Assembly: GCA_036873755.1 (NCBI GenBank) | Contig: JAVTVY010039253.1 | Location: forward strand, 1 to 64,000 | Reading direction: 5' to 3' | Length of the DNA stretch: 64,000 nucleotides | Source of the DNA: Hanleya hanleyi | Taxonomy: Eukaryota; Mollusca; Polyplacophora; Lepidopleurida; Hanleyidae | In this document: piece after piece, positions 3,881 to 63,349 of the stretch | Position numbering within the stretch: the first letter of the stretch is position 1 | Layout: every line of letters begins with the position of its first letter | Position numbers and translations under genes: made by a program | The notes under the pieces: model-generated | Databases searched by the model: none | Seen by the model: the letters and a program-made list of their open reading frames with translations, nothing else | Told to the model about the DNA's origin: nothing

Positions 3881-4641
3881 CCTTGACACTATTTAGGTTT
3901 ACAAATGCAACATTTCGATCTTCGCCGGATAGACTGACAAATCAATCCGCAGTTTCACAAAATACCATTACCATGTCAAAAGTTATGTTGTAGCACCAAC
4001 ATACATGTGGTAAATTATACAGTCTGACAATGTACGCTGTGTCCCGAAATCTGATAGAGGATTTGAACAATGTACATTCATTTTTGAGATGTTCGATTGT
4101 TCCATTTTTCATTTTAATGATCATCTTTCATTGCTAGCCATTGCTCGAGATCCATCAGACTTCATGGCATCCATCGTCCAGCACACCAATGCACCATCCG
4201 TACATTCGACTATATTTGCCGACCCTCGTTTAGAAATCACAAAACTAAAACCACCCGAATCGCGGAGAGTCAGTATAGTGTCCCCTCGAAAGTTACATCT
4301 TTTCAAAGCTTGCGGAAAAACAAAACGTGGTCGAAGGCGTATTCTACGTCTAAACATGCTAAATGACCAAAAGAGAAGTAAAATTTACACTGAATTTGCG
4401 AGTTCCAGTTTTATATCCCCCTCCCCCCCCCCAACCTCTATGACAGATGCATCAGTTAATGTAGACCGAGAAAAATATGAAAAAAAATCGAAAATTCGAA
4501 CTCTTTCTATTTTACTTTGACAAAATGGAGATCGACAGTTGGAAAACCAAGTAATAAAAAAGGTCTTACAATATAATCAATAGCACATTGAACTGTTCAA
4601 GTACGGTACATACACTTGAGGAATATGACGTACATACGTAC
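3881..4641. other. no confident gene; possible THAP-gene intron or downstream DNA
   Basis: This stretch lies downstream (minus strand) of the THAP exon's splice donor. Overlapping ORFs exist on both strands (4089-4520 plus, 4121-4357 minus), but neither shows a motif I recognise, and the plus one ends in C/T-rich and A-rich simple sequence. A later exon of the THAP gene could be here; I cannot show it. Confidence 0.4.
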
Positions 4642-5001
4642 CTCTACTAGTCGCCGCCGCTTTTCAGCCGCTCCTCGGAAGACAGGCGTAGCCTTCTCTG
4701 TGGTGAAGGCAAAAATAGTAGGACACGCCCCAGGCTTCAGCCGACGGCGCATCGATGAACCCGACGGAGTTTCCATTAGTCCAAAATACACTTTTAAAGC
4801 ATATGATGGCTCAAAACAATCCTCCTCGAAATGTGCAGAACACACCGTGCTGTTTTTTGTAGGTACAAACCCATCCCGCCGAATCAAATGAACCCATTTT
4901 TTCTTGATTTGTTCATCCCGCGGGAAAGCATGGAAACTAATACCCTTCGCCGGAGTACGATCAGTACGATTCGCGCAGTTATATGCGGCACAAAATGGCA
5001 T
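4642..5001 (-). CDS. THAP-domain zinc-finger protein, first coding exon
   Basis: The minus strand opens with ATG at 5001 (MPFCAAYNCANR) and encodes a THAP domain, a sequence-specific C2CH zinc-binding DNA-binding fold found in transcription regulators and in P/Kolobok transposases. Visible hallmarks in order: Cys4 and Cys9 (C-x4-C), the conserved Pro/Phe region FHAFPRD, Trp in KKWVHLIRR, the C-x2-H pair in VCSAHFEEDCF, and the closing Pro-containing box KPGACPTIF, about 90 residues in all. A basic EKRRRL tail follows and the exon ends at a good donor, GTAGAG|GTACGTATG, at 4642/4641. An in-frame upstream Met at 5061 exists, but MPFC is the usual THAP start. Later exons are not identified, so host gene versus domesticated or inactive transposase gene is open. 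The domain shows no stop or frameshift. Confidence 0.85.
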
Positions 5002-5156
5002 GATAACTTTCCCGAATATCCTTGCCGACGGAGGCACAGAAACACCGAGAAATATCTTCAAAAATTAACACTTGTCGCTTCCCTGTCTACATGATTCGCG
5101 CCATGTGCACAGCAGACTGTTGTTCCACTGCTACGTCACGGATCGCAGCGCCCACA

Positions 5157-6832: not shown

Positions 6833-7642
6833 TTCTAATCTGGATTTGAAGGAAACTACAGATAGCCCTACAGGCACATCTTATTTAGATCTCTATCTCT
6901 ATAAAAATGAAGCGGGCATTCTCTCTCGTCGACTTTATGACAAAAGAGATGATTACAATTTCGACATCGTAAACTATCCCTTTCTGGATAGTAATATTCC
7001 AGTGGGACCTGCATATGGCGTATACATATCTCGCTTAGTAGCATTTGCTAGATCCTGTGTTAAATGTGATGATTTTAATCAACGTCACAAAACATTGTTG
7101 CAGAAACTTATAAAACAGGGATATTCCACCAAGCGCCTCCACTCAAAGTTTCTCAAATTTGGCGATACATATCGCATGCTGATAGCAAAATACGAACGTA
7201 GCGTGCAAGATCTGTGGCGCTGCGTTTCGTAACTTGTGTCTAATTCCGCTTAACCCGGGGCTAGGGGCCGTATGAACCCATGTACTTCAAGATCCTCATG
7301 GTACTCATATGAACAGTCACAATCAAAGCGTGACTGAGATACATCTTTTTTTTTTTAGATGACGACTCTATAACGAATATTATGGATTAAGAATACTGAT
7401 CAGCGATACGGATTTGATATTTTTGGAACATCATGATGTCTTGCCGGCATCATTGAAAACTGTTGACCGCTTCTCTCTTGCAGGAAACAAGCCTATGTTT
7501 ATGTATACTATGATTGTCTTTTTGAATTTGGTGCTAATACTGTTATGCGGCAAATGGAATAGGTCTTTGGATTATGGACGCGGATATTCTCTAATGGACG
7601 ACGGCTGGATTATGAATGACGGACTAGACGCTTGTAATTCTA
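6833..7642 (+). pseudogene. PLE fragment: reverse-transcriptase C-terminus plus 3' tail
   Basis: A 5'-truncated Penelope-like element. From 6846 to 7232 it encodes the end of the RT: GTSYLDLYLYKNEAG, then the thumb region with GPAYGVYISRLVAFARSC and LLQKLIKQGYSTKRL, ending YRMLIAKYERSVQDLWRCVS and stop. No GIY-YIG endonuclease follows, so this lineage lacks the C-terminal nuclease of classical Penelope. Three bases after the stop a structured RNA motif begins, followed by a ~300-bp conserved tail ending GACTAGACGCTTGTAA. Other copies of the same region are at 14991-15770, 42749-43500 (minus), 51823-52213 and 9759-9889 (minus). Confidence 0.85.
7236..7342 (+). ncRNA. candidate ribozyme-like RNA in PLE tail (copy 1)
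   Basis: The motif starts GTGTCTAATTCCGCTTA and ends GACTGAGATAC. Helices visible: P1 GTGTCT/AGATAC; a short stem CCC/GGG after the conserved CCGCTTA; a hairpin TATGA-CCATG...CATGG-TCATA; and CAGTCAC/GTGACTG closing the loop AATCAAAGC. Loop AAGC can pair with the conserved GCTT, making a pseudoknot. The conserved strand CTAAT..CCGC..., the A-rich AAT(A/C)AAAGCG and the GAGA end recall twister ribozymes, but the CAGTCAC/GTGACTG stem is not standard for twister; the identity is tentative. Confidence 0.55.
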
Positions 7643-9758: not shown

Positions 9759-9889
9759 TTACAAGCGTCTGGTCCGTCATTCATAATTCAGCCGTCGTCC
9801 ATTAGAGAATATCCGCGTCCATAATCCAAAGACCTATTCCATATAACAGTATTAGCACCAAATTCAAAAAGACAATCATAGTATACATA
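9759..9889 (-). mobile_element. 5'-truncated PLE 3' tail
   Basis: About 130 bp matching the end of the PLE tail (minus strand, ending GACGCTTGTAA). It interrupts the transposase between the codons for YKRL and VHLLTHLL. It is homologous to 7510-7640 and 42749-42880. Severe 5' truncation with an intact 3' end is expected of target-primed reverse transcription. Confidence 0.8.
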
Positions 9890-10284
9890 AACGTCCATCT
9901 GCTAACGCATTTGTTGAAAACCAGGGACCCCTTTGGGCAACATCAGCATTTGTTGTTGAAGATGCGCATGGCAGACTACAGAATCTCTACCATGGAGCAT
10001 AGCAAATGTTCAAATCTTTCTCCACCAAGAGAGAACTGTCACTGATGGCAAGAATACACCTACCAGGTTCCATTGATGCGGTCTGCAAAATCAACAACCA
10101 CATCAGTGAAAACAGTGGAGAAGTATGATTCTTTCACTGGACTTAAATCCCACTGTTAGAGATCTTGCAATTGACGAAAGTTTAAGGATGCAAGTTGAAC
10201 GCTCTGGGAAATTCTTCAAGCGCTTCATGGTCAATGGGGAACGAGACGTTTCTGCTCTGGAAATATTTAGTCAGCCAAGAAAGA

Positions 10285-11252
10285 TCGGCTTTTCTTGAAA
10301 CTCAACTACTTAGATAAAGGACTGGACATTATTAATTTATCTCGAATCCTGAATGATCCAGAGGTACGCAACGCTGTACCAAACTATTTTAAGTTCACAG
10401 AACCTCCTTGCATTTCATATAAGTATACTAAATCTATAGCCACCAAAATATTCAATTACCCCAAAGCTGTCAAGGAGTTTGACTGGAACTTATACACGTC
10501 AGGAGGCTATAGTTGTGATTGTGAATCGTTGTACTTTATCTATACACCATGTAAACGTGTTGTGAATGGTGACCTGGATGTGGTGAGTGATAAGGACCTG
10601 AAATTACTCCTGATGAAAGGACCTAAATATATGGAGCCGAGAAGAATAAATCTGAAGGCCGACCAGAAGGTAGTCCTGTCTGCATTGGAAGAGTAAGTTA
10701 TTGATTGGTCTGAGCGAGAAAAAGTTGAACCTACAGTACTCGCTGATTGGCTGGACCCCACCAAAGCAAGGTCGTTGAAACAATCCGCCATATTGACAGA
10801 AGTACTCTTCCCCAAGCAAAACAAGTACTGAGCAACCTCAATTCGCAAGAAGTTCTAGCAAATCTCCAGAGTAAATTCGTCATAGTCCCAGCAGACAGAG
10901 CTTCAAATAATATAATATTCATATGTAAATATTACTATTACCAGATGCTGGTTAAAGAATTGAGTGTAGACATATCATCAAATACGTCTACTTACTCCCA
11001 AACTTCACATACTCTGGAAGATTTATTTGACAATCACAAAACGTTTCTCAGGGAAAGAGGTATTTGTCTTCCAACCAATCATAACGACATACCAAAAGTA
11101 TACTGGACTCTCAAAATGCATAAATCACCATACAAAGCTAGATTCATAGCTGGTTCTAGAAGCTGCACCACGAAGCTTCTTTCAACCCCGTTGACGAGGG
11201 CACTTCAGGAGGTAACAGAATTTTGGAAAAGATATTGCGCCACTATTTCTAA
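10285..11252 (+). pseudogene. PLE protein, N-terminal part and start of RT domain
   Basis: The ORF starts MKLNYLDKGLDIINLSR and carries blocks typical of PLE proteins: EPPCISYKYTKSIATKIFNY, GGYSCDCESLYF with a C-x-C pair, KRVVNGDLDVVSDKDLKLLL and KGPKYMEPR (10295-10696). A stop at 10694 breaks the frame. The second segment, 10747-11256, has FVIVPADRASNNIIFICKYY (RT motif region) and KVYWTLKMHKSPYKARFIAG with CTTKLLSTPLT. The frame ends in a 2.1-kb insertion at 11253. The continuation is at 13402-13985 and 14991-15770, so this is one PLE of roughly 2.3 kb split by two insertions. It was itself inserted in the Tnp2-like transposase. No N-terminal nuclease is visible. Confidence 0.85.
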
Positions 11253-11821: not shown

Positions 11822-12289
11822 TTGAAATAAAATTGCAGTGTGAAAGTTTAGCTACTGTGCAAAGTTTCACTGTTGAGCAAGCTTACTTTCCCTTGCACAG
11901 AAAAGAACAAACCGAACACTGTCGGAGCGTTTTATTCAAGTGAAGTTCGACCAGTTCATAGCTGAGAGATGTCAGCGCGGCACACTGCCACAAGTGACAT
12001 GGACGAAATAAACAAATTCAAGTTCATTTACTTGCAGTGCTGGCCGTGAGGAAAATGCAGCAGAGTTAGCCATCACTCACATCAAAAAGCTGTAAGGCGA
12101 GTATGGGCGAGTGACCGTCACTCTCCTTGGAAAATGTTTAGGCGAGTGACTCCAAATTGTACTGCCAAATTAAGGAGGATGTTAGTCAAACATTGGTGTT
12201 CAGATCAAACCATCTTCTTGTAAGCTGAATTGTTCGTGGGGCTTTTGTCCGGGCACCCTTTTACACAGACCCAAAAATCGTCACAAATG

Positions 12290-13320
12290 TACCCAATTTC
12301 AATAGGTTTGTGATTTACCACACAATATGCTACCAAATTTGAAGTGTGTAGCTGCAATGGTTTGGTTTCTAAAGCATTAACGTCATTCTGTGGATATTTT
12401 CCATTATGTTGCCATGGAAACAGCAAAAACACCCAAATTTACCCAATTTCAATAACCTTGTGCTTTACCACCCAACATTGCTGTAGACCAAATCTGAAGT
12501 ATCTAGCTGGAACGGTTCGGCTTTTAGAACGTTCAAGTCGTCATGTGGATATTTTTCGTTATGTTGCCATGGAAACCACAAAAATAAAAAAATTGTCCCC
12601 AATTTCAATAGGCTTGCGCTTTACCATGCAACAATGCTGTATACCAAACTTGAAGTTTCCAGCTGCAACGGTTCGGCTTTTAGAGCATTCACGTCGTAAT
12701 GTGGATATTTGTCGTTATGTTGCCATGGAAACCACAAAAACCACCAAAATGTCCCCAATTTCATTAGGCTTGTGCTTTACCATGCAACAATGCTGTATAC
12801 CAAATTTGAAGTCTCCAGCTGCAACGGTTCGGCTTTTAGAGCATTCACGTCGTAATGTGGATATTTTTCGTTATGTTGCCATGGAAACCACAAAAACCGC
12901 CAAAATGTCCCCAATTTCAATAGGCTTGTGCTTTACCACCCAACAATGCTGTATACCAAATTTGAAGTTTCTAGCTGCAACGTTTCACCTTTGAGAGCGG
13001 TCACGTCACCATGTGGATATTTTTCATTATGTTGCCATGGAAACCACAAAAATAAACTAAATGCGCCCAATTTCAATAGGCTTGTGCTTTACCACCCAAC
13101 AATGCAGAATACCAAATTTGAAGTCTCCAGCTGCAACGGATCACCTTTTAGAGCGGTCACATCGTTATATGGATATTTTTCGTTATGTTGCCATGGAAAC
13201 CACAAAAATCAACTAAATGTGCCCAATTTCAATAGGCTTGTGCTTTACCACCCATCAATGCAGTATACCAAATTTGAAGACTCTAGCTGGAACGGTTCGC
13301 CTTTTAGAGCGGTCACTTCG
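12290..13320. repeat. 156-bp tandem array (core of element A)
   Basis: The marker GCCATGGAAAC recurs at 12411, 12566, 12722, 12878, 13034 and 13190, a spacing of 155-156 bp. Each unit also has ATTTCAATAGGCTTGTGC, TACCAAATTTGAAGT and TAGAGCGGTCACGTC. Since 156 is divisible by three, long open frames run through the array on the plus strand; these are artefacts. Confidence 0.95.
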
Positions 13321-13401
13321 TTCATCCAGCCAGCCAGCCATCCAGCCAGCCAGCCGGACAGCGTGGCGACATGATCCCATCCGGCATATATGCCGATGGG
13401 A

Positions 13402-13985
13402 TAAAAACTCTGGCGTTGAATGTATGTGGATATTGAAAAACTCAAAATGTCTCACGGAAGAACTTGATGCTAAAGGTCACATATCGTACAGACATGTATC
13501 CACATGGGATTTCTCGACTCGCTATACTACAATCCCTCTTCAGGACATTATTGACCGTCTAAGTTCATTAATAGTATCTGTGTTCAAGAAAACTGATCGA
13601 GGATATATTAATGTCGGAAGCAATAAAGCATTCTTTAGATCTACTACATACAAGAGATATCATTCATGGGATGTTTCTTTGTTTATAGAGTTGCTTGAAT
13701 TTGTCATTAAAAATATCTATGTGAAATGTGGCAACACAATATGTCAGCAGCATATAGGTATTCCAATGGGTACTAATTGTGCACCCCTATTGGCTGACCT
13801 GTATCTGTTCTTTTATGAATATGACTACATGTATATGCAGGCGCTTTCAAAAACCGATCCATTCAAAGCCCGTTCCTTCTCATTCACCAAACGCTATATA
13901 GACGGTCTTCTCGCTGTGGATAATCGCTATATAAATAACGCAGTGTAGGATATATATCCATCTTCACTGGATTTGAAGGGAACTA
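13402..13985 (+). pseudogene. PLE RT core, catalytic box altered
   Basis: Continuation of the PLE interrupted at 11253. It reads VECMWILKNSKCLTEELDA, then STWDFSTRYTTIPLQDIID (motif A), IGIPMGTNCAPLLADLYLF (motif B, the PMGTNCAP signature of PLEs) and KRYIDGLLAVDNRYI (motif C). The usual YIDD of motif C, intact in the minus copy at 43.6 kb, is YIDG here, which should abolish polymerase activity. A stop follows at 13948 (NNAV*). At 13986 a 1005-bp hAT-like insertion separates it from the thumb region at 14991. Confidence 0.88.
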
Positions 13986-14990
13986 CAGGCACGGCGGAAA
14001 CAATTCATGATCATGATGATTGGGGGGGCTACTATCACAGGACAATTAGGCGAGGGTCCAGGGGCCGCCTAGGCCCCGGAAGCTCCAGGGGTATTAGATG
14101 GCCAGATAGGCGTTCTAGCGCATTTCCGAGCAATAAAACAAGAAATTATCGCCCGTGTAAACTCTATTGGTGTTGCCTGTTTTCCCCAACATTTTTAAAT
14201 GTTCATCGTCAAGCAAAGTGATGTTCGGAAGTATGAATAATTTAAATATATATCAATCCAAATATATTCAATCCAAAGGTTCATTGAGCTTCCATCATGT
14301 CACTCGTACAGAGATTTTTTCTGCTTGTTGGGGAGCCTTTTGTCTCCTTGTGATTCATGTATATTGAAAATTCTACCGCCGTCAGCGAACGTTCAACTTC
14401 TGCGATACCGGTACGTGGGGTGAAAACTCACCTCGGTCCACTGCATGCTCCGAACCGATTCTCGCTGTTGACGAATTCGTTCGCTATATCAACTAAGGTG
14501 ATGGATACAACTTGGTTGATATACATGTAGCGAAGGAAGTCATCAACAACGAGAATCGGAGGTGAGTATTCGGTCGGTTTTTGGAGTAGTCATTCAGTCA
14601 TAATTGAATTGTTATTACAGCGTGTACTAGAGCAGCATTTTATGAACACAACTTGTAAATCATGTGAATAAGCAAGGATGTCTTTCATGGTTGTAACTTA
14701 TCGGAAATGAAAATCTGCATTCAATACAGATATAGGTGTTTACTAAACAATGCCGGTAAAAAAAATTCTAGAGCTTTGGCTGACCCACTAATGCTGGACA
14801 GTTGTAAATAGTTTTAGTTATGCGATAGATATGCGACGCAGACAATTCATTTTACTATTTATTTCGAAAATACGTATTCATTGAAGTATTTTTGCGTTGA
14901 CAGTGTCAATGGCATATGAATTTTAGAAAAGTTGGCCAAATTATTGGGGGGGCTTCAGCCCCCGTAGCCCCCCCGGCTCCGCCGTGCCTG
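13986..14990. mobile_element. hAT-like non-autonomous element, 5-bp TSD (copy 1)
   Basis: Ends are CAGGCACGGCGGA... and ...TCCGCCGTGCCTG (13-bp TIRs) flanked by the 5-bp duplication AACTA (13981-13985 and 14991-14995). The empty site is seen in other PLE copies as GGAAACTACAGATAG. Subterminal runs of G and C include GGGGGGGCTTCAGCCCCC. An internal inverted repeat lies at ~14455-14556 (GATTCTCG...CGAGAATC). No transposase. The CAG-type TIR suggests hAT, where 5-bp TSDs occur in one subgroup. Confidence 0.8.
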
Positions 14991-15770
14991 AACTACAGAT
15001 AGCCCTACAGGCACGTCGTATTTAAATCTATATCTCTACAAAAATGAAGCGGGCATTCTCTCTCGTCGACTTTATGACAAAAGAGATGATTACAATTTCG
15101 ACATTGTAAACTATCCCTTTCTGGACAGTAATATTCCAGTGGGACCTGCATATGGCGTATACATATCTCGCCTTGTAGCATTTGCTAGATCCTGTGTTAA
15201 ATGTGACGATGTTAATCAACGTCACAAAACATTGTTGCAAAAACTTATAAAACAAGGCTATTCCACCAAGCGCCTCCACTCAAAGTTTCTCAAATTTGGC
15301 GATACATATCGCATGCTGATAGCAAAATACGAACGTGGCGTGCAATATCTATGGCGTTACGTTTCGTAACTTGTGTCTAATTCCGCTTAACGGAACTAGG
15401 GGCCGTATGAACCCATGTACTTCAAGATCCTCATGGTGCTCATATGAACAGACACAATCAAAGCGTGACTTACATACATCATTCTCTAGATAACGACTTT
15501 ACAACGATTATTATGGATTAAGAATACTGATCAGCGATACGGATTTGATATTTTTGGAACATCATGATGTCTTGTAGGCATCATTGAAAACTGTTGACCG
15601 CTTCTCTCTTGCAGGAAACTAGCCTATGTTTATGTATACTATGATTGTCTTTTCGAATTTGGTGCTAATACTGTTATATGGATATAGAATAGGTCTTTGG
15701 ATTATGGACGCGGATATTCTTTAATGGACGACGGCTGAATTATGAATGACAGACTAGACGCTTGTATTGT
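14991..15770 (+). pseudogene. PLE thumb region and 3' tail
   Basis: Completes the PLE begun at 10285: GPAYGVYISRLVAFARSC, LLQKLIKQGYSTKRLHSKF and a C-terminus ending LWRYVS-stop at 15367-15369, then the tail to GACGCTTGTATT. An early stop (QARRI*) breaks the frame just after the insertion. The tail matches the copy at 6.8-7.6 kb at nearly every base, with a few substitutions. No C-terminal endonuclease. Confidence 0.85.
15373..15477 (+). ncRNA. candidate ribozyme-like RNA in PLE tail (degenerate copy)
   Basis: Same position, 3 nt after the RT stop. The 5' strand GTGTCTAATTCCGCTTA is kept, but the stem that follows is damaged (CGGAACTAGGGG instead of CCCGGGGCTAGGGG) and the closing strands have changed to CAGACAC...GTGACTT and ACATAC. 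It is probably inactive, in line with the dead RT upstream. Confidence 0.5.
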
Positions 15771-16414: not shown

Positions 16415-16998
16415 ACATTGTGGCAATGTATATGAAATGTTATTTATATAGGAGTAAAATGCAAACTAAAGTAGTTTTATATATATATGAAGAGTGGTGT
16501 AATTATATACACTCTACATTTGCTAAACATATAAACCGATTGAACGTATATAGTGTAACTGACATTGAACGTATATAGTGTAAGCTGATATATATATAGA
16601 ACGACTGAATACGGCGTATTTGATACGGCGTATTTGACAAAGACGCTTAACGGATATGACAGGCGGATATGGCAGGCGGAAGTATGCTGTGAGCATGCAC
16701 GTTGTGCTCGTGCAAAGCATTGCGGTTCCAGTTCCACGATAACAGTGGCCATTGACTGATTCCCGCTCTCAAACAAGGGTCTCCGACACAATACAACGAC
16801 TCGACTTGGTTGCCAGTCAACAGTGGCCAGTGCCATATTAAAATTTGCGAATAGAGAGAGGTCAGCCCGTCGCCACTTTACGGTGGCCCATAGACGACAT
16901 GCTATATTTTTTAGTTTTGAGTTTATTTTTTTTACTTCTAGGTTTCATTTTTTGTGTTAGGTTTCATTTTTTTGTTTTAGGTTTATTTCTTTAGTTTT

Positions 16999-17110
16999 CA
17001 CCCGGGTGAAAACCTTCTCACTTGGGTGGAAAGTTTACCATCTGAGTGAAAACCTTCTCACCCGGGTGAACACGTTTTAACCTGGGTGAGAAGGTTTTCA
17101 CCTGAGTGGA
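16999..17110. repeat. CACCCGGGTGAAAAC short tandem palindromes (left arm)
   Basis: Six variants of the ~20-bp unit CACCYGGGTGAAAACCTTCT, each with a palindromic centre, in one row. The mirror array sits in the right arm at 22366-22480. Confidence 0.85.
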
Positions 17111-17291
17111 AATTCACGTGATTGTGCCCTCGTTTTAGTTCCCTTGCACTGACATTCCGGCAAAATGGAGGGTGGTTCGTTCAAAAGTATAGATGATCTC
17201 AAACTGTCAAACTGAACTTTCATGTTTGATCATGCAGTCGATAAATGATATTTCACGTCTTGCGTGTTTTACATACCGGTAAGTTGTATTT

Positions 17292-22275: not shown

Positions 22276-23162
22276 TTTAGGCCTATACTTTTGAACGAAC
22301 CTCCCTCCATTTTGACGAAATGTCAGTGCAAGGGAACGAACACGAGGGCACCATCACATGAATTTTCACCTGAGTGGAAACCTTTTCACCCAGGTGAAAA
22401 TCTTCTCACCCAGGTGAAAACGTGTTCACCCGGGTGAGAAGGTTTTCACCCAGGTGGAAACGTTTCCACCCGGGTGAAAACTAAAGGAATCAACCTAAAA
22501 AAAAAAATGAAACCTAACGCAAAAAAATGAAACCTAGAAGTTAAAAAAAATAAACTCAAAACTAAAAAAAATTAGCATGTCGTCTATGGGCCACCGTAAA
22601 GCGGCGACGGGCTGACACCTCTCTATTCGCAAATTTTAATATGGCACTGGCCACTGTTGACCGGCAACCAAGTCCAGTCGTTGGATTGTGTCGGAGACCA
22701 TAGTTTGAGAGCGGAAATCAGTCAATGGCCTTTTTTATCGTGGAACTGGAACCGCAATGCTTTTCGCGAGCACAACGTGCATGCTCACAGCATACTTCCG
22801 CCTGCCATATCCGCCTGTCATATCCGTTAAGCGTCTTTGTCAAATACGCCGTATCAAATACGCCGTATTCAGTCGTTCTATATATATATCAGCTTACACT
22901 ATATACGTTCAATATCAGTTACACTATAATACGTTCAATCGGTTTATATGTTTAGCAAATGTAGAGTGTATATAATTACACCACTCTTCATATATATATA
23001 AAACTACTTTAGTTTGCATTTTACTCCTATATAAATAACATTTCATATACATTGCCACAATGTTACAATATACGATAAAACCATCCCATATTCTGTAACT
23101 TTCAATATAACATTTCCAATATAACGACCCAATTCACACCATATTCATTCATTATCACCATA

Positions 23163-30734: not shown

Positions 30735-30932
30735 CTGCAAATATTAACAACAATTTGTCATTGTAGAAACAAGGTACGGTATACACATCTAATGTGAATG
30801 ATCTGATGATTCAATCACAGGAAATTAAACTTAATTAAATTTAAACTAATGGGAAGGGATCGAAGTTCATGAAATGGTTTAACTTGTTTAAGGTACTGGA
30901 AGTATAATAGCTGTTTTGACATGTTTGAGAAC
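30735..30932. other. intron upstream of Ig exon
   Basis: Contains the acceptor's pyrimidine-rich side (minus strand). Otherwise featureless. Confidence 0.4.
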
Positions 30933-30984
30933 AATTACCAGTATACGAGTTGTCAGAGCATTTCCATCATAGCTCTCTAGATTT

Positions 30985-31079
30985 GTATCTAATACCGCTT
31001 ATGCCGGTGCTAGGGGCCGTGTGGTCATATCATCCAAGTTGCCGCATGAACAGGTACAATAAAAGCGTACCTGAGATAC
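30985..31079 (+). ncRNA. candidate ribozyme-like RNA (left repeat)
   Basis: A 95-nt motif, and the best-formed copy. P1 GTATCT/AGATAC; conserved AATACCGCTTA; stem GCC...GGC (loop GGTGCTAGG); hairpin GTGTGG...CCGCAT; then CAGGTAC-AATAAAAGC-GTACCTG, a perfect 7-bp stem. Loop AAGC is complementary to GCTT of the conserved strand. Compared with the PLE copies, the 7-bp stem differs at two pairs and stays paired (CAGGTAC/GTACCTG versus CAGTCAC/GTGACTG). Confidence 0.6.
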
Positions 31080-31493
31080 AACACATATCACGAATCGTTA
31101 GATTCTTGGTGTGTGCTTTAGAATAGGTTAACCAGAGGACTATTCTGTGAAGTCATGTGACGCAGTCAGTATGTCGGCACCTCTTCCCACTTCCCTTATA
31201 TGTGTTGTAATTTTTTCCTGTATATGGCGAGATTCTGCTGGTGGACGTTTCGTCCCCGAGGCCCGCCCCCTGTACAGACCTTTTGGTCTTTGATATATGT
31301 TGGCATTTGTGGGAAGTTGATGCTGGGTGGACATCGGGCCTTACAGACTAGTCTTTTGTGTTAAATGCCGTCATTTACATCTGACGACGATACAGCTCAC
31401 CAATCTCCAATGTACGAGTTGTCACAGCGAAACAGCTCACCAATTACCAGTATACGAGTTGTCAGAGCATTTCCATCATAGCTCTCTAGATTT

Positions 31494-31588
31494 GTATCTA
31501 ATACTGCTTATGCCGGTGCTAGGGGCCGTGTGGTCATATCATCCAAGTTGCCGCATGAACAGATACAATAAAAGCGTACCTGAGATAC
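31494..31588 (+). ncRNA. candidate ribozyme-like RNA (right repeat)
   Basis: Same 95-nt motif as the left repeat with two substitutions: AATACTGC for AATACCGC in the conserved strand, and CAGATAC for CAGGTAC, leaving one A-C mismatch in the 7-bp stem. If the RNA is catalytic this copy may be weaker. Confidence 0.55.
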
Positions 31589-31721
31589 AACACATATCAC
31601 GAATCGTTAGATTCTTGGTGTGTGCTTTAGAATAGGTTAACCAGAAGACTATTCTGTGAAGTCATGTGACGCAGTCAGTATGTCGGCACCTCTTCCCACT
31701 TCCCTTATATGTGTTGTAATT

Positions 31722-33079: not shown

Positions 33080-33340
33080 TAAAATACATGTGTGAGATAT
33101 GATGATGATGATGTATTAAACAATATGAAGGATTGTTGATCTCTCCATTCATCCATCCTCAAATTCATGCACATACAGCAGTGAGTTAATGTGACTTAAC
33201 GTCGCTTTCAACTTTATTTTTGTCATATCACGACATTTGAGTCCTGATCCGTTTTACAATGGGACCCCACAGGTTCCCCAGTTAGTCGCCTCTTATGACC
33301 AGCTATCCGAGGAGATTACACCCGTAATTCTTTCCATGAC
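33080..33340 (+). repeat. gastropod-type interspersed repeat fragment
   Basis: Contains GTGAGTTAATGTGACTTAACGTCGCTTTC and ATATCACGAC, then GGGACCCCACAGGTTCCCC and GTCGCCTCTTATGACCAGC. Related heads occur at ~9355 (minus), 41880-41940, 50440-50500 and 63590-63640. It leads directly into the 40-bp satellite. Confidence 0.65.
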
Positions 33341-33980
33341 CTGAGATGTGCACCGCGACACCGCATGTCAATCTGATAACCTGAGATGTGCACCGCGACA
33401 CCCCAGGTCAATTTGGTAACTTGAGATGTGCACTGCGACACCCCAGGTCAATCTGATGACCTGAGATGTGCACCTCGACTCTTCAGGTCAATCTGATAAC
33501 CTGAGATGTGCACCGCAACACCCCAGGTCAATCTGATAACCTGAGATGTGCACCGCGACACCCCAGGTCAATCTGATAACCTGAGGTGTGCACCGCGACT
33601 CCCCAGGTCAATCTGATGACCTGAGATGTGCACCGCGACTCTCCAGGTCAATCTGATAACCTGAGATGTGCACCGTGACACCCCAGGTCAATGTGATAAC
33701 TTGAGATGTGCACCGCGACACCCCAGGTCAAGCTGATAACCTGAGATGTGCACCGCGACTCTCCAGGTCAATCTGATAACCTGAGATGTGCACCGCGACA
33801 CCCCAGATCAATCAGATAACCTGAGATGTGCACCGCGACATCCCAGGTCAGTCTGATAACCCGAGATGTGCACCGCGACACCCCAGGTCAATCTGATAAC
33901 CTGAGATGTGCACCGCGACACCCCAGGTCAATCTGATAACCTGAGATGTGCACCGCGACACCCCAGGTCAATCTGATAAC
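33341..33980. repeat. 40-bp satellite, 16 copies
   Basis: Exact 40-bp periodicity of CTGAGATGTGCACCGCGACA + CCCCAGGTCAATCTGATAAC from 33341 to 33980, with scattered substitutions (CACCTCGACTCTTCAGG, GTGACA). The unit has no strong internal symmetry and no unique spacers, so this is a minisatellite and not a CRISPR. Confidence 0.97.
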
Positions 33981-35960
33981 CTGGGATGTTCATAATGATG
34001 ACGACCAATCCCCCAGAAGCCCCACAGTGCTACACGATATATACTTGCCATTACTGTTCACTTGGATTATACATGTAAGAATGACCCACACAGAGACAGC
34101 AATAACCACAGTATGGTCTACATTTGTGTCCATCCTGAAAAAAAACAACACAAGCATTGTTATTACGATTATGTTTGAAGACCTGTTGTTTGAAGAAACA
34201 TGCATCCCGAGTTATGTACAGCTGACAAGCAGTGTGAATTACTGAACACTATGATAGGTCCTGATTCAAAACTTCAAGTGAAATCTCTAACCTAATACCT
34301 CTGCTGTTTATTCTACATAGCGTGCTTGAAGTACATATGTTTAATAGATTTGATGGTGATAACTAGATAGACTTTACCAGGTTGGTGATTTCCTGTCATA
34401 AAATCATGTCAGGAATCAGTTTTCTGCACACAATTCATGGGTTTGAAAACAAAGCATGCACCACAACCACAGTGCACTATTTGTTTACTGGTAATCGTAA
34501 TTGTATCAGAACTAGTGAGTGCAACTATTCATGCTAATTGTTGCACCATTTTCTATAGGATTTGACACACTTTTCAGCTGGAACTGTCTAAGCTATTATC
34601 ATGCTCATATATTACACTTAATCGCCATGCAGGGTGTTAGCCAGATAAACATCCAAATATCACATTTTATTAGAATTGGACAAGCTACTTCCATGTTTTC
34701 CTATCTCCCATGTTAAATTGTCTAATTTTTGTCTGTCCAGATTTGCAATTGTCTGTCCAATGCACTGGTGGATGGGTCTCTGGCTAACCCCATGTAGAGC
34801 ATGGACCTGCATATATATGGAGGATGCCTACAATATAGATTTGAAATTATATGGTTCTTGATGGTCTACTGACTATACAGGTACATGGTATATTAGGCAA
34901 TCTCAGTAAATTGTGATGGTCGCTCACGGAGATACACTATCAACTTGCCGATATCTAAAACTGGATGTGCCATACTGTGATGCCACACACAGGGTAAGCT
35001 TTTGAATACCTATCATTCTTAAATAAATTGGATATTATCATTGCTTTTTAAATTGCAGGCGGTAAATTCCACATTAATGGTCCCATTGGGAATTTTTCAA
35101 AACTTATTTGAGACCATATCATACCTAACAACTGAAAGTCCACACCCCCAGCTCCATTGAACTGGTTTCACAGTTGTGACACACCTCTTGGTTCTAAAGA
35201 TTGATCTACTTTTCTGATACTGCATGTGTAGAAGAATACAGGTGATACCCCGACGTGCATCAGATGGTGTACAAAGTACATCTTCATCTTTCTCCATCTT
35301 ATCTTTATTCTGTACAGTGCCGGGGTTGGTTAGTTTATATTTGCTTTGTAACAAGCTTTATCACAAGGCACAATTCCCCTGTTGTGATCTTGATGAGTAT
35401 CCAATGTCCCCTCGGCCTCAATTTTACCGCATAATTTGTTTTTCTTATCAACAGCCCACACATTATATCAAATCTCTCACTTCCTACATCACAGAGTATA
35501 AGACCTTCATTTTAGTTGCAACAGACAAATAGTTGAGGTAAGTGTCAGTACAGCTAATTAAAATCTGTCCAATCAGTCACACTTTTGTGTGGGGTAGCGT
35601 CTGCTTTTTAGAAATGACTGTTAAAAACAAGCGCTGAGAGACATTGGCAAAGGAACGCGCCAAGAGAAAACGCGAAGAGACGTATGAATAGTGTAAGACA
35701 CATCATTCATTGTACCATAACCAATGCGAATTAAAAAAAGAGGAGCAATGAAATCTGCTGAGTCGGAATCTGTGAAAAAGGAGAGAAAAAGACATAGAGG
35801 ACCAGAAATGTAGATGTAGATCTGTAAAATATGAATGTATGGATCAAATATATGTACACAAAAAAGCAATGATAATGATTTTCAGAATCAGAACTGGTGG
35901 TTTTGTGAAATCATCGTTAATACTGATATCAAGTATAGGTTGTCCCATCAGTCCAATGTA
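33981..35960. other. unassigned DNA
   Basis: ORFs of 60-100 aa occur on both strands but overlap, lack motifs and show no splice context I can support. No repeat pair within the window. Confidence 0.4.
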
Positions 35961-42748: not shown

Positions 42749-44748
42749 CAAGCATCTAGTCCGTCATTCATAATTCAGCCGTCGTCCATTAAAGAATATC
42801 CGCGTCCATAATCCAAAGACCTATTCCATATTTCATATAACAGTATTAGCACCAAATTCAAAAAGACAATCATAGTATACATACACATAGGCTAGTTTCC
42901 TGCAAAAGAGAAGCGGTCAACAGTTTTTAATGATGCCGACAAGACATCATGATGTTCCAAAAATATAAAATCCGTATCGCTGATCAGTATTCTTAATCCA
43001 TAATATTCGTTGTAAAGTCGTCATCTAGAGAATGATGCATCTCAGTCACGCTTTGATTGTGACTGTTCATATGAATACCATGAGGATCTTGAAGTACATG
43101 GGTTCATACGGCCCCTAGCCCCGGGTTAAGCGGAATTAGACACAAGTTACGAAACGTAACGCCATAGATTTTGCACGCTACGTTCATATTTTGCTATCAG
43201 CATGTGATATGTATCGCCAAATTTGAGAAACTGAGTGGGGGCGCTTGGTGGTGTAGCCCTGTTTTGTAAGTTTCTGCAACAATGTTTTGTGACGTTGATT
43301 AAAATCGTCACATTTAACACAGGGTCTAGCAAATGCTACTAGGCGTGATATGTATACACCATATGCAGGTCCCACTGGAATATTACTGTCCAGAAAGGGA
43401 TAGTTTACGATGTCGGAATTGTAATCATCTCTCTTGTTATACAGCCGACGAGAGAGAATGCCCGCTTCATTTTAACAGAGATATAGATCTAAATATGATG
43501 TGCCTGTAAGGCTATCTGTAGTTTCCTTCAAATCCAGTGAAGGTGGATATATATTCTTCACTGCGTCGTTTATATAGCGATTATTCACAGCGAGAAGATC
43601 GTCTATATAGCGTTTGGAATGGATCGGTTTTTGAAAACGCCTTTCCTTAAAGTCATATTCATAAGAGAACAGATATAGGTCAGCCAATAGGGGTGCACAA
43701 TTAGTACCTATTGTAATACCTATATGCTGTTGATATATTGTGTTGCCAACTTTCACATAGATATTTTTAATGAGAAATTCAAGCAACTCCATAAACAAAG
43801 AAACATCCCATGACTGATATATCTTGTATGTAGTAGAGCTAAAGAATGCTTTATGGTTTCCGACATTAATATACGATCAGTTTACTTGAACACAGATGCT
43901 ATTAATGAACTTAGACGGTCAATAAGGTCCTGATGAGGGATTGTAGTATAGAGAGTCGAGAAATCCCATGTGGATACATGTCTGTACGGTATGTGACCTT
44001 TAGCATCAAGTTCTTCCGTAAGACATTTTGAGTTTTTCAATATCCACATACATTCAACGTTTTTAGAAATAGTGGCGAAAAACCTTTCCCAAAATGCTTT
44101 TATCTCCTGAAGCGTCAACAGGGTTGAAAGAAGCTTGGTGGTGCAGCTTCTAGAACCAGCTATGAATCTAGCTTTGTATGGTGATTTATGCATCTTGGGA
44201 GTCCAGTATACTTTTGGTATATCGTTATGTTTGGTTGGAAGACAAATACCTTTTTCCCAGAAAAACGTTTTGTGATTGTTAAATAAATCCAGAGTGAATG
44301 CAGTTTGAGACTAAGTAGACATATTTAATGACGATATGTTTACACTCAATTATTCAACCAGCACCTGGTAATAGTAATATTTACATATGAATATTATATT
44401 CGCTTTGTCTGCTGGGACTATGACGAATTTATTCTGGCGATTTGCTAGAACTTCTTGCGAATTGGGGCTTCTCAGTACTTGTTTTGCTTGGGGAAAGGTA
44501 CTTCTGTCAATATGGCGGATTGTTTCAACGACCTTGCTCTTGGTGAGGTCCAGCCAATCAGCGAGTACTGTAGGTTCAACTTTTTCTCGCTTAGACCAAT
44601 CAATAACGAACTGTTCCAAAGCAGACATGACTATCTTCTGGTTGTCCGATTTATATTTCTCGGCTTTCTATATAGGTCCCTTCATCAGGAGTAATCTTAG
44701 GTGCTTATCACTCACCACATCAAGGTCACCAGTCACAACATGTTTGCA
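42749..44748 (-). pseudogene. PLE, minus strand: RT domain, thumb and tail
   Basis: The most complete PLE RT in the window, though frameshifted. From the 5' side: MSALEQFVIDWSKREKVEPT and NKFVIVPADKA (44628-44350); MHKSPYKARFIAGSRSCTTK and STWDFSTLYTTIPHQDLID, motif A (44193-43882); IGITIGTNCAPLLADLYLF, motif B with the normal PMG altered to TIG; and KRYIDDLLAVNNRYIND, motif C with both Asp (43798-43472). Then the thumb GPAYGVYISRLVAFARPC (43375-43147), stop, RNA motif, and tail ending at 42749. Its N-terminal part continues at 48946-49020, because a 4.2-kb element is inserted at 44749. No GIY-YIG nuclease. Confidence 0.87.
43037..43143 (-). ncRNA. candidate ribozyme-like RNA in PLE tail (minus copy)
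   Basis: Same motif directly after the RT stop: GTGTCTAATTCCGCTTA, CCC/GGG stem, TATGA-CCATG hairpin, CAGTCAC-AATCAAAGC-GTGACTG, closing AGATGC. The last strand has one change (AGATGC for AGATAC), giving G-C at a position that is a G-U wobble... with GTGTCT, GCATCT would pair less well, so P1 is slightly weakened or shifted. Confidence 0.5.
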
Positions 44749-50900: not shown

Positions 50901-51822
50901 CGAAACTCACAAACACTCCCAGATTCGCATAGCTGAGAGCAGAGAAATTCAGGAAAAACATCCTAGTCTTTAGTGGTGCAGTTCACACTTGCCACTGGTT
51001 CGTACAAAGTGGCTTCTCCCTAATTTCATAATAAAGAAGGTCGCCCGTTTTTGACAGCATGATAATGCTTCCATTTTTACTTACTGATATCTATAATACC
51101 AACTGTTGGACGAAACCATTTCTCCAAACGGGCATATAACATTTGAAGGCTGACGGGCCTATGCGCCACTACAGAGTTAAATATTTGGCACGTCAAAATC
51201 CGCACTTTTTTCGGGACGCGAAAATGATTCCTTTATGGCGATAAGATTTTACAACAAACGAGTAGGTCGATCCTCTACTTTTTTTGCCTTTTCAAAATGC
51301 ATAGAAAGAAAAGCATACGTTTTCTATGAGTTGTGGGTCGAATTTGACACATTTTCATACACTCTTTTTTGAATCGCACATAAGTTTTGTGTAGACTGCA
51401 CCCTTACGTTCTACTTCGCGCTTAGACTGGTTCCCGCTCTCAAACTAAGGTCTCCGATACAATCTAGATTTAGAGCGACACCGGCCGGCATTTTTTGCTA
51501 AGATGGGTGGCGGTAAATTTAGCGGTGTTTGTCTATTGTTGGTCCATGTGAATCAGGCATTGTTCTGAGCATGGTGGAATTGTACAACCAAGATGACACG
51601 GTCTTTAATCTTCTTTTAAACTTATTATGAAATGTTAGCATTAACTTGTACTTTTTGAGGATGGGTGGAGCCGGGAAACAGTGACCGTGTTGTAGTGTCA
51701 GTGCATTTTTGTCACTTGGGTCCAGTTTTCAACATTACGAAAACGACATCCAAACACGAGAAATTAAGAATATCTAATTATGTGTGACTGATAGCTTCAA
51801 AATATATCATGTTTAGAAGCAT
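50901..51822. other. repeat-derived, no gene
   Basis: Holds the second copy of the ~240-bp repeat (51115-51352) and a GGTTCCCGCTCTCAAACTAAGG segment (51430) like one in the arms of the giant foldback (~16760). Confidence 0.5.
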
Positions 51823-51929
51823 GTGTCTAATTCCGCTTAACCCGGGGCTAGGGGCCGTATGAGCCCATGTACTTCAAGACCCTCATGGTACTCATATGAA
51901 CAGTCACAATCAAAGCGTGACTGAGGTAC
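51823..51929 (+). ncRNA. candidate ribozyme-like RNA (solo copy)
   Basis: GTGTCTAATTCCGCTTA ... CAGTCAC-AATCAAAGC-GTGACTG-AGGTAC. P1 is GTGTCT/AGGTAC with one changed position. The central TATGA-hairpin has TATGAGCCCATG for TATGAACCCATG, outside the paired bases. Confidence 0.5.
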
Positions 51930-52213
51930 ATCATTTTTAGATGACGACTCTATAACGAATATTATGGATTAAGAATACTGATCAGCGATACGGATTTGAT
52001 ATTTTGGAACATCATGATGTCTTGCCGGCATCATTGAAAACTGTTGACCGCTTCTCTCTTGCAGGAAACAAGCCTATGTTTATGTATACTTTTGTCTTTT
52101 TGAATTTGGTGCTATACTGTTATATGGAAATGGAATAGGTCTTTGGATTATGGACGCGGATATTCTCTAATGGACGACGGCTGGATTATGAATGACGGAC
52201 TAGACGCTTGTAA
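51823..52213 (+). mobile_element. solo PLE tail (pLTR-like) starting at the ribozyme motif
   Basis: A 391-bp copy of the PLE 3' region whose homology begins at the first base of P1 (GTGTCTAATTCCGC) and runs to GACTAGACGCTTGTAAT. The RT coding sequence that precedes this point in three other copies is absent. Small deletions occur at 52090 and 52120. Confidence 0.75.
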
Positions 52214-52499
52214 TGTGTTGTTGCCATGTTTTCGAGATAAGGCCATAGTATAGTCGGCCATATAATGTCCGCTTTGTCGGTTTAGAAATGGCAAAGTCCC
52301 AGGTAGGTTTCCCCATGTAAGTAGCAAATACTAGAGCATATCCCATTTATTTTTCTTGCCCATGTCGAAGAATTACAAAATTGTGAACAAATTCCGAAGA
52401 TAAAAATGTAACATCCCACCCTGCATTCGAACTTGTTGTTGTTGCTGTATTCCTTAAGGCATTGTCCAATGGATGCTGCCAATCGTCACTCTGTAGAAT
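52214..52499. other. unassigned spacer
   Basis: No gene; a GTTGTTGTTGC run near 52433. Confidence 0.4.
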
Positions 52500-58831: not shown

Positions 58832-59089
58832 GTATCTAATTCCGCTTAAGCCGATGTGATGGCTAAGAATGTCCTGGGGATTAGTGTCCCTATTCATATC
58901 CTTTTCTATTGCAACTGAGGATGGAAACCCATCTCCAATGTGGAGAAATATGTCCTAGCTGGGTTAAAAGATAGAAGCCGGACACTCGTAGCCACCGGAC
59001 ATTTTTAGCCTCCACACCGGTGATAGGTGCCGCCTGGAAACTTCATATTCTCCACATGAATAGCCGCAATAAAAGCGCGGCTGAGATAC
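58832..59089 (+). ncRNA. divergent, expanded ribozyme-like RNA (duplication copy A)
   Basis: GTATCTAATTCCGCTTAAGCC at the 5' side and AATAAAAGC-GCGGCT-GAGATAC at the 3' side match the core of the motif. P1 is GTATCT/AGATAC; the post-core stem is AGCC/GGCT with loop GATGTGAT; the last hairpin is AGCCGC-AATAAAAGC-GCGGCT. All three differ in sequence from the PLE copies yet still pair. The middle hairpin is replaced by a ~180-nt insertion, which holds its own repeats. Confidence 0.5.
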
Positions 59090-63215: not shown

Positions 63216-63349
63216 GTATCTAATTCCGCTTAAGCCGATGTGATGGCTAAGAATGTCCTGGGGATTAGTGTCCCTATTCATATCCTTTTCTATTGCAACT
63301 GAGGATGGAAACCCATCTCCAATGTGGAGAAAAATGTCTTGTGGAGAAA
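63216..63349 (+). ncRNA. 5' half of the divergent ribozyme-like RNA (copy B, truncated)
   Basis: GTATCTAATTCCGCTTAAGCC and GATGTGATGGCT as in 58832, but the 3' strand (AATAAAAGC...GAGATAC) is missing because the duplication is joined to the 50.2-kb-type repeat at 63350. Non-functional by expectation. Confidence 0.5.

What the first reader, a model, noticed from the sequence alone, without database searches (positions are those of the whole stretch)
30985..31588. A covarying, pseudoknot-capable RNA motif (ribozyme candidate) shared by PLE tails and small repeats
Seven full or near-full copies (7236, 15373, 30985, 31494, 43037 minus, 51823, 58832) plus a half copy (63216). All keep TCTAAT.C(C/T)GCTTA near the 5' end and AAT(A/C)AAAGC near the 3' end. 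Three helices change sequence but keep pairing: terminal GTGTCT/AGATAC or GTATCT/AGATAC; inner CCC/GGG, GCC/GGC or AGCC/GGCT; and CAGTCAC/GTGACTG, CAGGTAC/GTACCTG or AGCCGC/GCGGCT around the A-rich loop. AAGC in that loop can pair with the conserved GCTT. The conserved strands recall twister (cleavage expected at the U-A of CUAAU), but the stem closing the A-rich loop does not fit the standard twister layout, so this may be a variant or a new class. Known Penelope ribozymes are hammerheads; I see no hammerhead core here.
Basis: partly seen in the sequence, partly recalled or inferred. Interest (0 to 1): 0.93.

Follow-up and report, generated by a model that had tools for sequence, protein, structure and literature searches.

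The report
Possible new ribozyme in jumping genes
A folded RNA of about 95-107 bases, whose paired stems change sequence but stay paired, sits in the end repeats of a Penelope-like jumping gene and of small repeats that seem to borrow its machinery; it stands where such elements elsewhere carry a self-cutting hammerhead RNA but matched no family in the RNA library searched, so it may be a new kind of self-cutting RNA, which only a bench test can show.

Summary
The motif is real: its 14-base 5' block occurs 8 times exactly in the window and 66,649 times in the 2.48 Gb genome, against 67 for the reversed pattern. Repeat families A-D keep it. Covariation supports hairpins P3 and P4 well, inner helix P2 partly and outer helix P1 weakly. 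The GCUU/AAGC pseudoknot is conserved almost without variation: possible, unproven.

Family A is the pseudo-LTR of a Penelope-like element with a weak GIY-YIG match ahead of its reverse transcriptase. Family B (30932-31721) is a repeat-centre-repeat unit, 509 bases from motif to motif, laid out like a retrozyme. A, B and D, and C in part, share a box just behind the repeat end, tying the small repeats to the A element.

Rfam gave no ribozyme match at the motif. Twister's T1 contact and 3' P2 strand are missing.

Best reading: a self-cleaving ribozyme, or ribozyme-like processing element, of undescribed class that releases unit-length RNA (about 0.5). Cleavage is unproven, and sampled element ends do not cluster at the predicted site. 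Main rival: an RNA recognised by the element's protein.

The parts
30985..31079 (+). RNA motif, first B copy (intact). P1 30985-30990 with 31074-31079; P2 30994-30997 with 31005-31008; P3 31018-31025 with 31041-31048; P4 31051-31057 with 31067-31073; loop AATAAAAGC 31058-31066; possible pseudoknot GCTT 30997-31000 with AAGC 31063-31066; predicted cut (inferred only) between 30990 and 30991
   Evidence: R1 match 108 bits, in training set
31494..31588 (+). RNA motif, second B copy, 509 bases after the first; one P4 pair broken
30932..31212 (+). left direct repeat (LTR-like) of the B element
   Evidence: 98.9% identical to 31441-31721 over 281 bp
31441..31721 (+). right direct repeat of the B element
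31213..31440 (+). centre of the B element, 228 bases
31205..31276 (+). box shared with the A element at the start of its reading frame (82-83% over 72 bp) and with D; C shares mainly its first part
7236..7342 (+). RNA motif, A copy (intact) in an A fragment 6840-7639
15373..15477 (+). RNA motif, damaged A copy at the 3' side of a broken Penelope-like element (pieces 10550-11252, 13414-13988, 14991-15766)
43037..43143 (-). RNA motif, A copy in an element piece 44748-42744 (minus)
51823..51929 (+). RNA motif, A copy in a 5'-truncated fragment 51822-52214 that starts a few bases before the motif
58832..59089 (+). RNA motif, C copy split by an insert of about 164 bases (58853-59016, boundaries by eye)
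63216..63236 (+). 5' part only of a C copy (duplication of the 58832 region)

Best explanation
The motif is a conserved RNA module in the pseudo-LTRs of a Penelope-like retrotransposon and of its small non-autonomous relatives. Shown here: it lies on the sense strand of the element, occurs in both repeats of the two-repeat copies, forms at least two covarying hairpins, and is kept between A and B while most of the remaining repeat sequence is not. Inferred: it is a self-cleaving ribozyme, or ribozyme-like processing signal, of an undescribed class, standing where other Penelope-like elements and retrozymes carry a hammerhead. Transcripts through two repeats would be cut at each motif, possibly at CU|AAU, releasing a unit-length RNA (509 bases for B; about 3.4 kb for A in L042) that could be ligated into a circle. 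The Penelope-like protein would recognise the shared box behind the repeat and copy that RNA beyond one unit length, giving the repeat-centre-repeat inserts seen.
For: 66,649 exact 5' blocks against 67 control. Compensatory changes: 102 double-change cells against 41.4 in shuffles (0 of 500 as high) and at most 24 in slid controls; P3 GC/AU swaps at two pairs, P4 up to five pair types. A and B align only at the motif's 5' and 3' parts, not over the rest of the repeat around it. pLTR - coding region - pLTR with a motif in each in L039 and L042, and with an extra fragment in L046. B unit with two motifs 509 bases apart in the window, near-complete again in L020 and L025; C pair 467 bases apart in L031, the second motif disrupted. 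Shared box next to the repeat end in A, B, D and partly C: in a studied Penelope-like element the protein needs the first 172 nt of the reading frame and starts copying near the pLTR-ORF junction (passages of PMC11167929), so the recognition role may already be filled by the box. No Rfam ribozyme match at the motif. Analogy: hammerheads in pLTRs and in both repeats of retrozymes (passages).
Against: No cleavage was or could be tested here. A-family left ends are scattered; none of 46 lies within 3 bases of the predicted site. Of 20 copies lacking T before AAT only 4 begin exactly there, without a neighbouring-position control. Two of five covariation measures are not above shuffles (111 and 369 of 500), and relatedness inflates the others. 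P1, which would hold the site, has only one-sided changes, and a competing hairpin scores about as well. Single copies fold only modestly better than shuffles (5 to 39 of 200 shuffles fold as well). In the studied Penelope-like element the hammerhead is dispensable for insertion in vitro.
Confidence: 0.5

Rival explanations
1. The module is a recognition or assembly element for the Penelope-like protein, kept by non-autonomous elements so that they are copied in trans; it does not cut RNA.
For: Shared by the coding element A and by small B, C and D repeats; conserved loops and hairpins would suit a protein-bound RNA; the motif lies upstream of a fairly sharp right end.
Against: Distance from motif to box varies (191 to 399 bases in five of six cases, 696 in one), and the box next to the copying start is a better candidate for recognition by analogy with PMC11167929.
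Confidence: 0.25
2. The RNA is structured and selected but serves another step: translation start, export, stability, or cutting by a host enzyme.
For: It lies about 400 bases upstream of the reading frame in family A, where leader elements act.
Against: Short B elements without a long reading frame keep two copies of it, which a translation signal would not explain.
Confidence: 0.14
3. It is a strongly altered or rearranged twister ribozyme.
For: The strand UAAUNCYGC agrees with UAA-NNCN-GC of the Rfam twister-P1 consensus, and a hairpin loop ending AAGC can pair with the GC, as twister's loop contact does (the identity of that contact is recalled).
Against: No Rfam twister match at the motif; no CCC/GGG T1 contact and no 3' P2 strand directly before P1. 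A published search for missing twister permutations found no promising candidate (passage of PMC10085705).
Confidence: 0.08
4. The likeness is only shared ancestry of repeats; the RNA fold has no function.
For: All copies are repeats, and B, C and D are related in their centres as well; copies within a family are young and much alike.
Against: Compensatory changes above shuffled and slid controls; A and B keep the motif and box while most other repeat sequence no longer aligns.
Confidence: 0.03

Closest known systems
Penelope-like elements with hammerhead ribozymes (example PAc of Anolis, passages of PMC11167929; Cervera and de la Pena 2014 is cited there, its text is not held)
   Same: pLTR-ORF-pLTR layout, GIY-YIG and reverse transcriptase, an RNA motif in each repeat on the sense strand, element end near the pLTR-ORF junction
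   Different: GIY-YIG match lies before, not after, the reverse transcriptase; the RNA is not a hammerhead by Rfam in the element scanned and lies about 400 bases before the reading frame, not at its start
Retrozymes (passages of PMC7229834 and PMC7761336)
   Same: short non-coding repeat units with an RNA motif in each repeat; low GC as in animals; likely dependence on a Penelope-like element
   Different: no hammerhead match; one and a half units rather than long tandem arrays; a sequence box shared with the autonomous element, which the review says animal retrozymes lack
Twister ribozyme (RF03160, consensus seen)
   Same: UAAYNCNGC-like 5' strand; loop ending AAGC; UAAA-like run and GAG before P1
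   Different: no T1 contact, no P2 3' strand before P1, extra covarying hairpins, no model match

Membership tests
Twister ribozyme | match to a Rfam twister model | tested here: not met
   none at the motif: whole window at gathering score; stretches with A, B, C and D copies at E<=10. Eleven sub-threshold hits elsewhere in the genome (best 31 of 67.2 bits) are other repeats
Twister ribozyme | UAA strand with NCN then GC next to P1 | tested here: met
   UAAUNCYGC in the copies aligned, against the consensus
Twister ribozyme | P2 3' strand between L2 and the GAG before P1 | tested here: not met
   P4 3' strand runs directly into P1 3' strand
Twister ribozyme | T1 contact, loop CCC with GGG before P1 | tested here: not met
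   loop AATMAAAGC and 3' GAG-AUAC lack both strands (which strands form T1 is recalled)
Hammerhead ribozyme | match to a Rfam hammerhead model in the element | tested here: not met
   none in L042 3700-8000 (A) or in stretches around B, C and D motifs. Genome-wide search inconclusive: 73 of 343,663 candidates scored and no control genome rang
Hammerhead ribozyme | CUGANGA ... GAAA core in the element | tested here: inconclusive
   strict pattern 2 hits in 334,238 bases (same sequence in L008 and L032), reversed control 1; loose strings also occur once in the B element and once in the 43140 element, not in L042 or L046. The B string has no helix II by eye; the other was not assessed
Penelope-like element | reverse transcriptase with GIY-YIG nuclease | tested here: inconclusive
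   GIY-YIG E 8e-4, 20.1 bits under cut-off 22.6; RVT_1 E 0.097, under cut-off. 32 homologues, some with precomputed PF01541 or PF00078. Reading frames are broken and were not mended
Penelope-like element | pLTR in tandem around the coding region | tested here: met
   L039, L042, and L046 with an extra fragment
Retrozyme | short non-coding unit with the RNA motif in both repeats | tested here: met
   B element 30932-31721, L020, L025
Retrozyme | hammerhead ribozyme in the repeats | tested here: not met
   no Rfam hammerhead at E<=10 in 30900-31700; see the inconclusive string above
Retrozyme | circular RNA in tissue | not testable with these tools
   no RNA data here

The most novel reading that the evidence does not exclude
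A new structural class of self-cleaving ribozyme, present in tens of thousands of copies in one genome, which replaces the hammerhead in a lineage of Penelope-like elements with an N-terminal GIY-YIG domain and in the retrozyme-like parasites that these elements mobilise through a shared recognition box.
Probability: 0.4. Interest if true: 0.92.

Novelty: new variant of a known kind. Interest (0 to 1): 0.74.

Why it matters
[quoted passage not shown] A further class in the slot of the hammerhead would suggest that Penelope-like elements need RNA cleavage itself and not one fold. The box shared by autonomous and small elements also makes a stated gap testable: a review says that animal retrozymes show no conserved motif that would point to their autonomous partner.

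Tried and rejected
Known classes: no ribozyme family among Rfam hits at E<=10 in stretches holding A, B, C and D copies. The snoRNA, microRNA, lncRNA and CRISPR hits there (E 0.016-9.7) are far under their gathering scores and were set aside. By-eye comparison with pistol, HDV and hairpin ribozymes rests on recalled sequences and is only a lead.

Cleavage-coupled insertion: A-family left ends are scattered (46 ends, none within 3 bases of the predicted site; 6 at 1354-1383, where pLTR copies start; 5 are simply the start of the reference). 278 genome copies lack T before AATTCCGC.... Of 20 fetched, 4 (L060, L063, L070, L074) begin exactly at AAT; the other 16 keep some element sequence upstream, by eye only about 7 bases in L064. 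The 20 were picked by me from the 100 listed (11 with A, 6 with G, 3 with C before AAT). The control at a neighbouring position did not complete, so this is inconclusive.

Outside the genome: 0 hits in viral contigs; 1 in prokaryote genomes (L049), which shows no homology to the fetched loci of 5 kb or more or to the window and which I take as chance. No relatives of the protein in viral contigs. No PDB match.

Genome-wide family searches, both capped: twister-P1, 11 sub-threshold hits, 61 of 125,999 candidates scored, which lie in repeats of another kind; hammerhead, 0 at E<=1e-3, 73 of 343,663 scored and no control genome rang. Absence is not shown. Further families of the motif were sought with TCTAATNCYGCTTASN, never answered.

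Rows dropped: one search kept 70 sequences and dropped 24 without a 3' block (by eye 18 unrelated, 4 true copies with a broken 3' part, and the window copies 58832 and 63216); duplicates and short matches were skipped uncounted. A2 uses 43 sequences chosen by me: 42 of those 70, partly trimmed, plus 7236. The other 28 (mostly near-identical A or B copies, some with broken P4, two or more spurious) were left out. The P4 table (7 of 7 variants paired; 2 of 5040 permutations as good) uses intact copies picked by hand and leaves out L002, L035 and L043 (P4 broken) and L040; it is biased, and one search is the fairer count.

Full report
Observation. The conserved 5' block is present at all eight stated positions. 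In the 2.48 Gb genome that holds the window it occurs 66,649 times exactly, against 67 for the reversed pattern. Of 66 distinct exact copies in the loci fetched up to and the window, 35 continue as family A (ACCC), 14 as B (TGCC), 7 as C (AGCC) and 10 otherwise.

Structure. On 43 copies chosen by me (A2) the structure P1+P2+P3+P4+pseudoknot pairs in 93.3% of cells against 87.1% in shuffles; 102 cells carry changes on both sides (shuffled mean 41.4, 0 of 500 as high; slid controls at most 24), and the covariation score is 0.225 against 0.126 (0 of 500). Two other measures are not above shuffles: pairs with double changes, 7 (111 of 500 reach it), and further pair types, 27 (369 of 500). The signal lies in P3 (two pairs with clear GC/AU swaps, a third with 15 of 40 cells unpaired) and in P4 (three pairs, up to five types). 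P2 has one covarying pair, unpaired in 8 of 43. P1 has only one-sided changes (GU, AU, GC at its third pair). The pseudoknot strands hardly vary. A competing 5' hairpin that uses part of P1 scores about as well. With the pseudoknot left out, the P1 form has the lower threaded energy in 33 of 43 copies, and the median probability of one P1 pair is 0.79. In six copies folded alone, 5 to 39 of 200 shuffles fold as well or better. Cells count related copies and shuffles do not keep relatedness; I read P3 and P4 as strong, P2 as moderate, P1 as weak.

Context, family A. The motif lies in the pLTR of an element whose open frame in L046 (6032-8356, 775 aa) has a sub-threshold GIY-YIG match at residues 140-178, and whose reverse-transcriptase part lies downstream, with a sub-threshold RVT_1 match in L042. 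There are 32 homologues, the best 46% identical over 92%; some carry precomputed GIY-YIG or reverse-transcriptase domains. That an N-terminal GIY-YIG marks a separate Penelope-like lineage is recalled, not read here. In L039 and L042, and with an extra fragment in L046, a pLTR, coding sequence and a second pLTR follow each other. In L042 the motifs start at 4089 and 7485, 3396 bases apart. Of 49 right ends 36 fall in the last 11 bases of the reference, which itself stops there; left ends are scattered.

Context, families B, C and D. B is a 281-bp repeat, 228 bases, and the same repeat again; the full 790 bp recurs in L020 and nearly so in L025. Many B copies are cut short on the left. C has two motifs 467 bases apart in L031, the second disrupted. 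Right behind the repeat end A, B and D share a box (B against A 82-83% over 72 bp); C shares mainly its first part. Ten box copies were found; six have a motif upstream in the same locus, five of them 191-399 bases away and one at 696, where a further pLTR fragment lies between. In the Penelope-like element studied in vitro the protein needs the first 172 nt of the reading frame and copying starts near the pLTR-ORF junction, while its hammerhead is not needed for insertion in vitro (passages of PMC11167929). By analogy the box is the protein's site, which leaves the motif for another task.

What it most likely does. In retrozymes a ribozyme stands in each repeat, and transcripts are cut into units that become circles (passages of PMC7229834 and PMC7761336). 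The motif has that position, orientation and pairing with a small partner element, and no Rfam ribozyme matched in the stretches scanned. I take a processing ribozyme of unknown class as most likely (0.5), with a protein-recognition RNA as main rival (0.25). Cleavage, its site, circles and mobilisation are inferred. Against it stand the scattered left ends and the inconclusive junction test.

Comparison with twister and hammerhead. The Rfam twister-P1 consensus shares UAA-NNCN-GC and a loop ending AAGC, but T1 and the 3' P2 strand are absent here and no model matched, so membership is not claimed. Eckert et al. state that they searched for the missing twister permutations and found no promising candidates (passage of PMC10085705). 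Hammerhead core-like strings occur in few places and no Rfam hammerhead matched in the stretches scanned.

In print. Ten paper searches listed no title or abstract start that describes such an RNA; the 14-base block as a string gives 0 papers. The library holds open-licence papers only. I saw passages, not whole texts, of PMC10085705 (also its outline), PMC6154101, PMC7229834, PMC7761336, PMC11167929 and PMC3846280.

Noticed in passing
L050-L057, near base 1501-1557: A multi-copy genomic segment holds a 51-57 base stretch that scores 27.7-31 bits with the twister-P1 model (gathering 67.2), keeping GGTTCCAAGCCC and GCAGAGG; it is not in the A-D elements and may be chance or a decayed twister.
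   Followed up: partly
31205-31276 and L042:4480-4551, L046:6020-6091: The box behind the repeat end links small repeats to the coding Penelope-like element and may be its RNA recognition site.
   Followed up: partly
4597-5061 minus: Open frame with a THAP domain (Pfam E 1.6e-20).
   Followed up: no
12269-13325: Tandem repeats of roughly 150 bp lie between two pieces of the broken Penelope-like element.
   Followed up: no
33336-33989: Tandem array with a 40-base period.
   Followed up: no
16415-17192 and 22283-23063: Inverted pair of about 780 bp, 92% identical.
   Followed up: no
9759-9892: Inverted copy of the A-element tail (matches 7497-7637 reversed, 93.6%), as inverted pLTRs are described for Penelope elements.
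   Followed up: no
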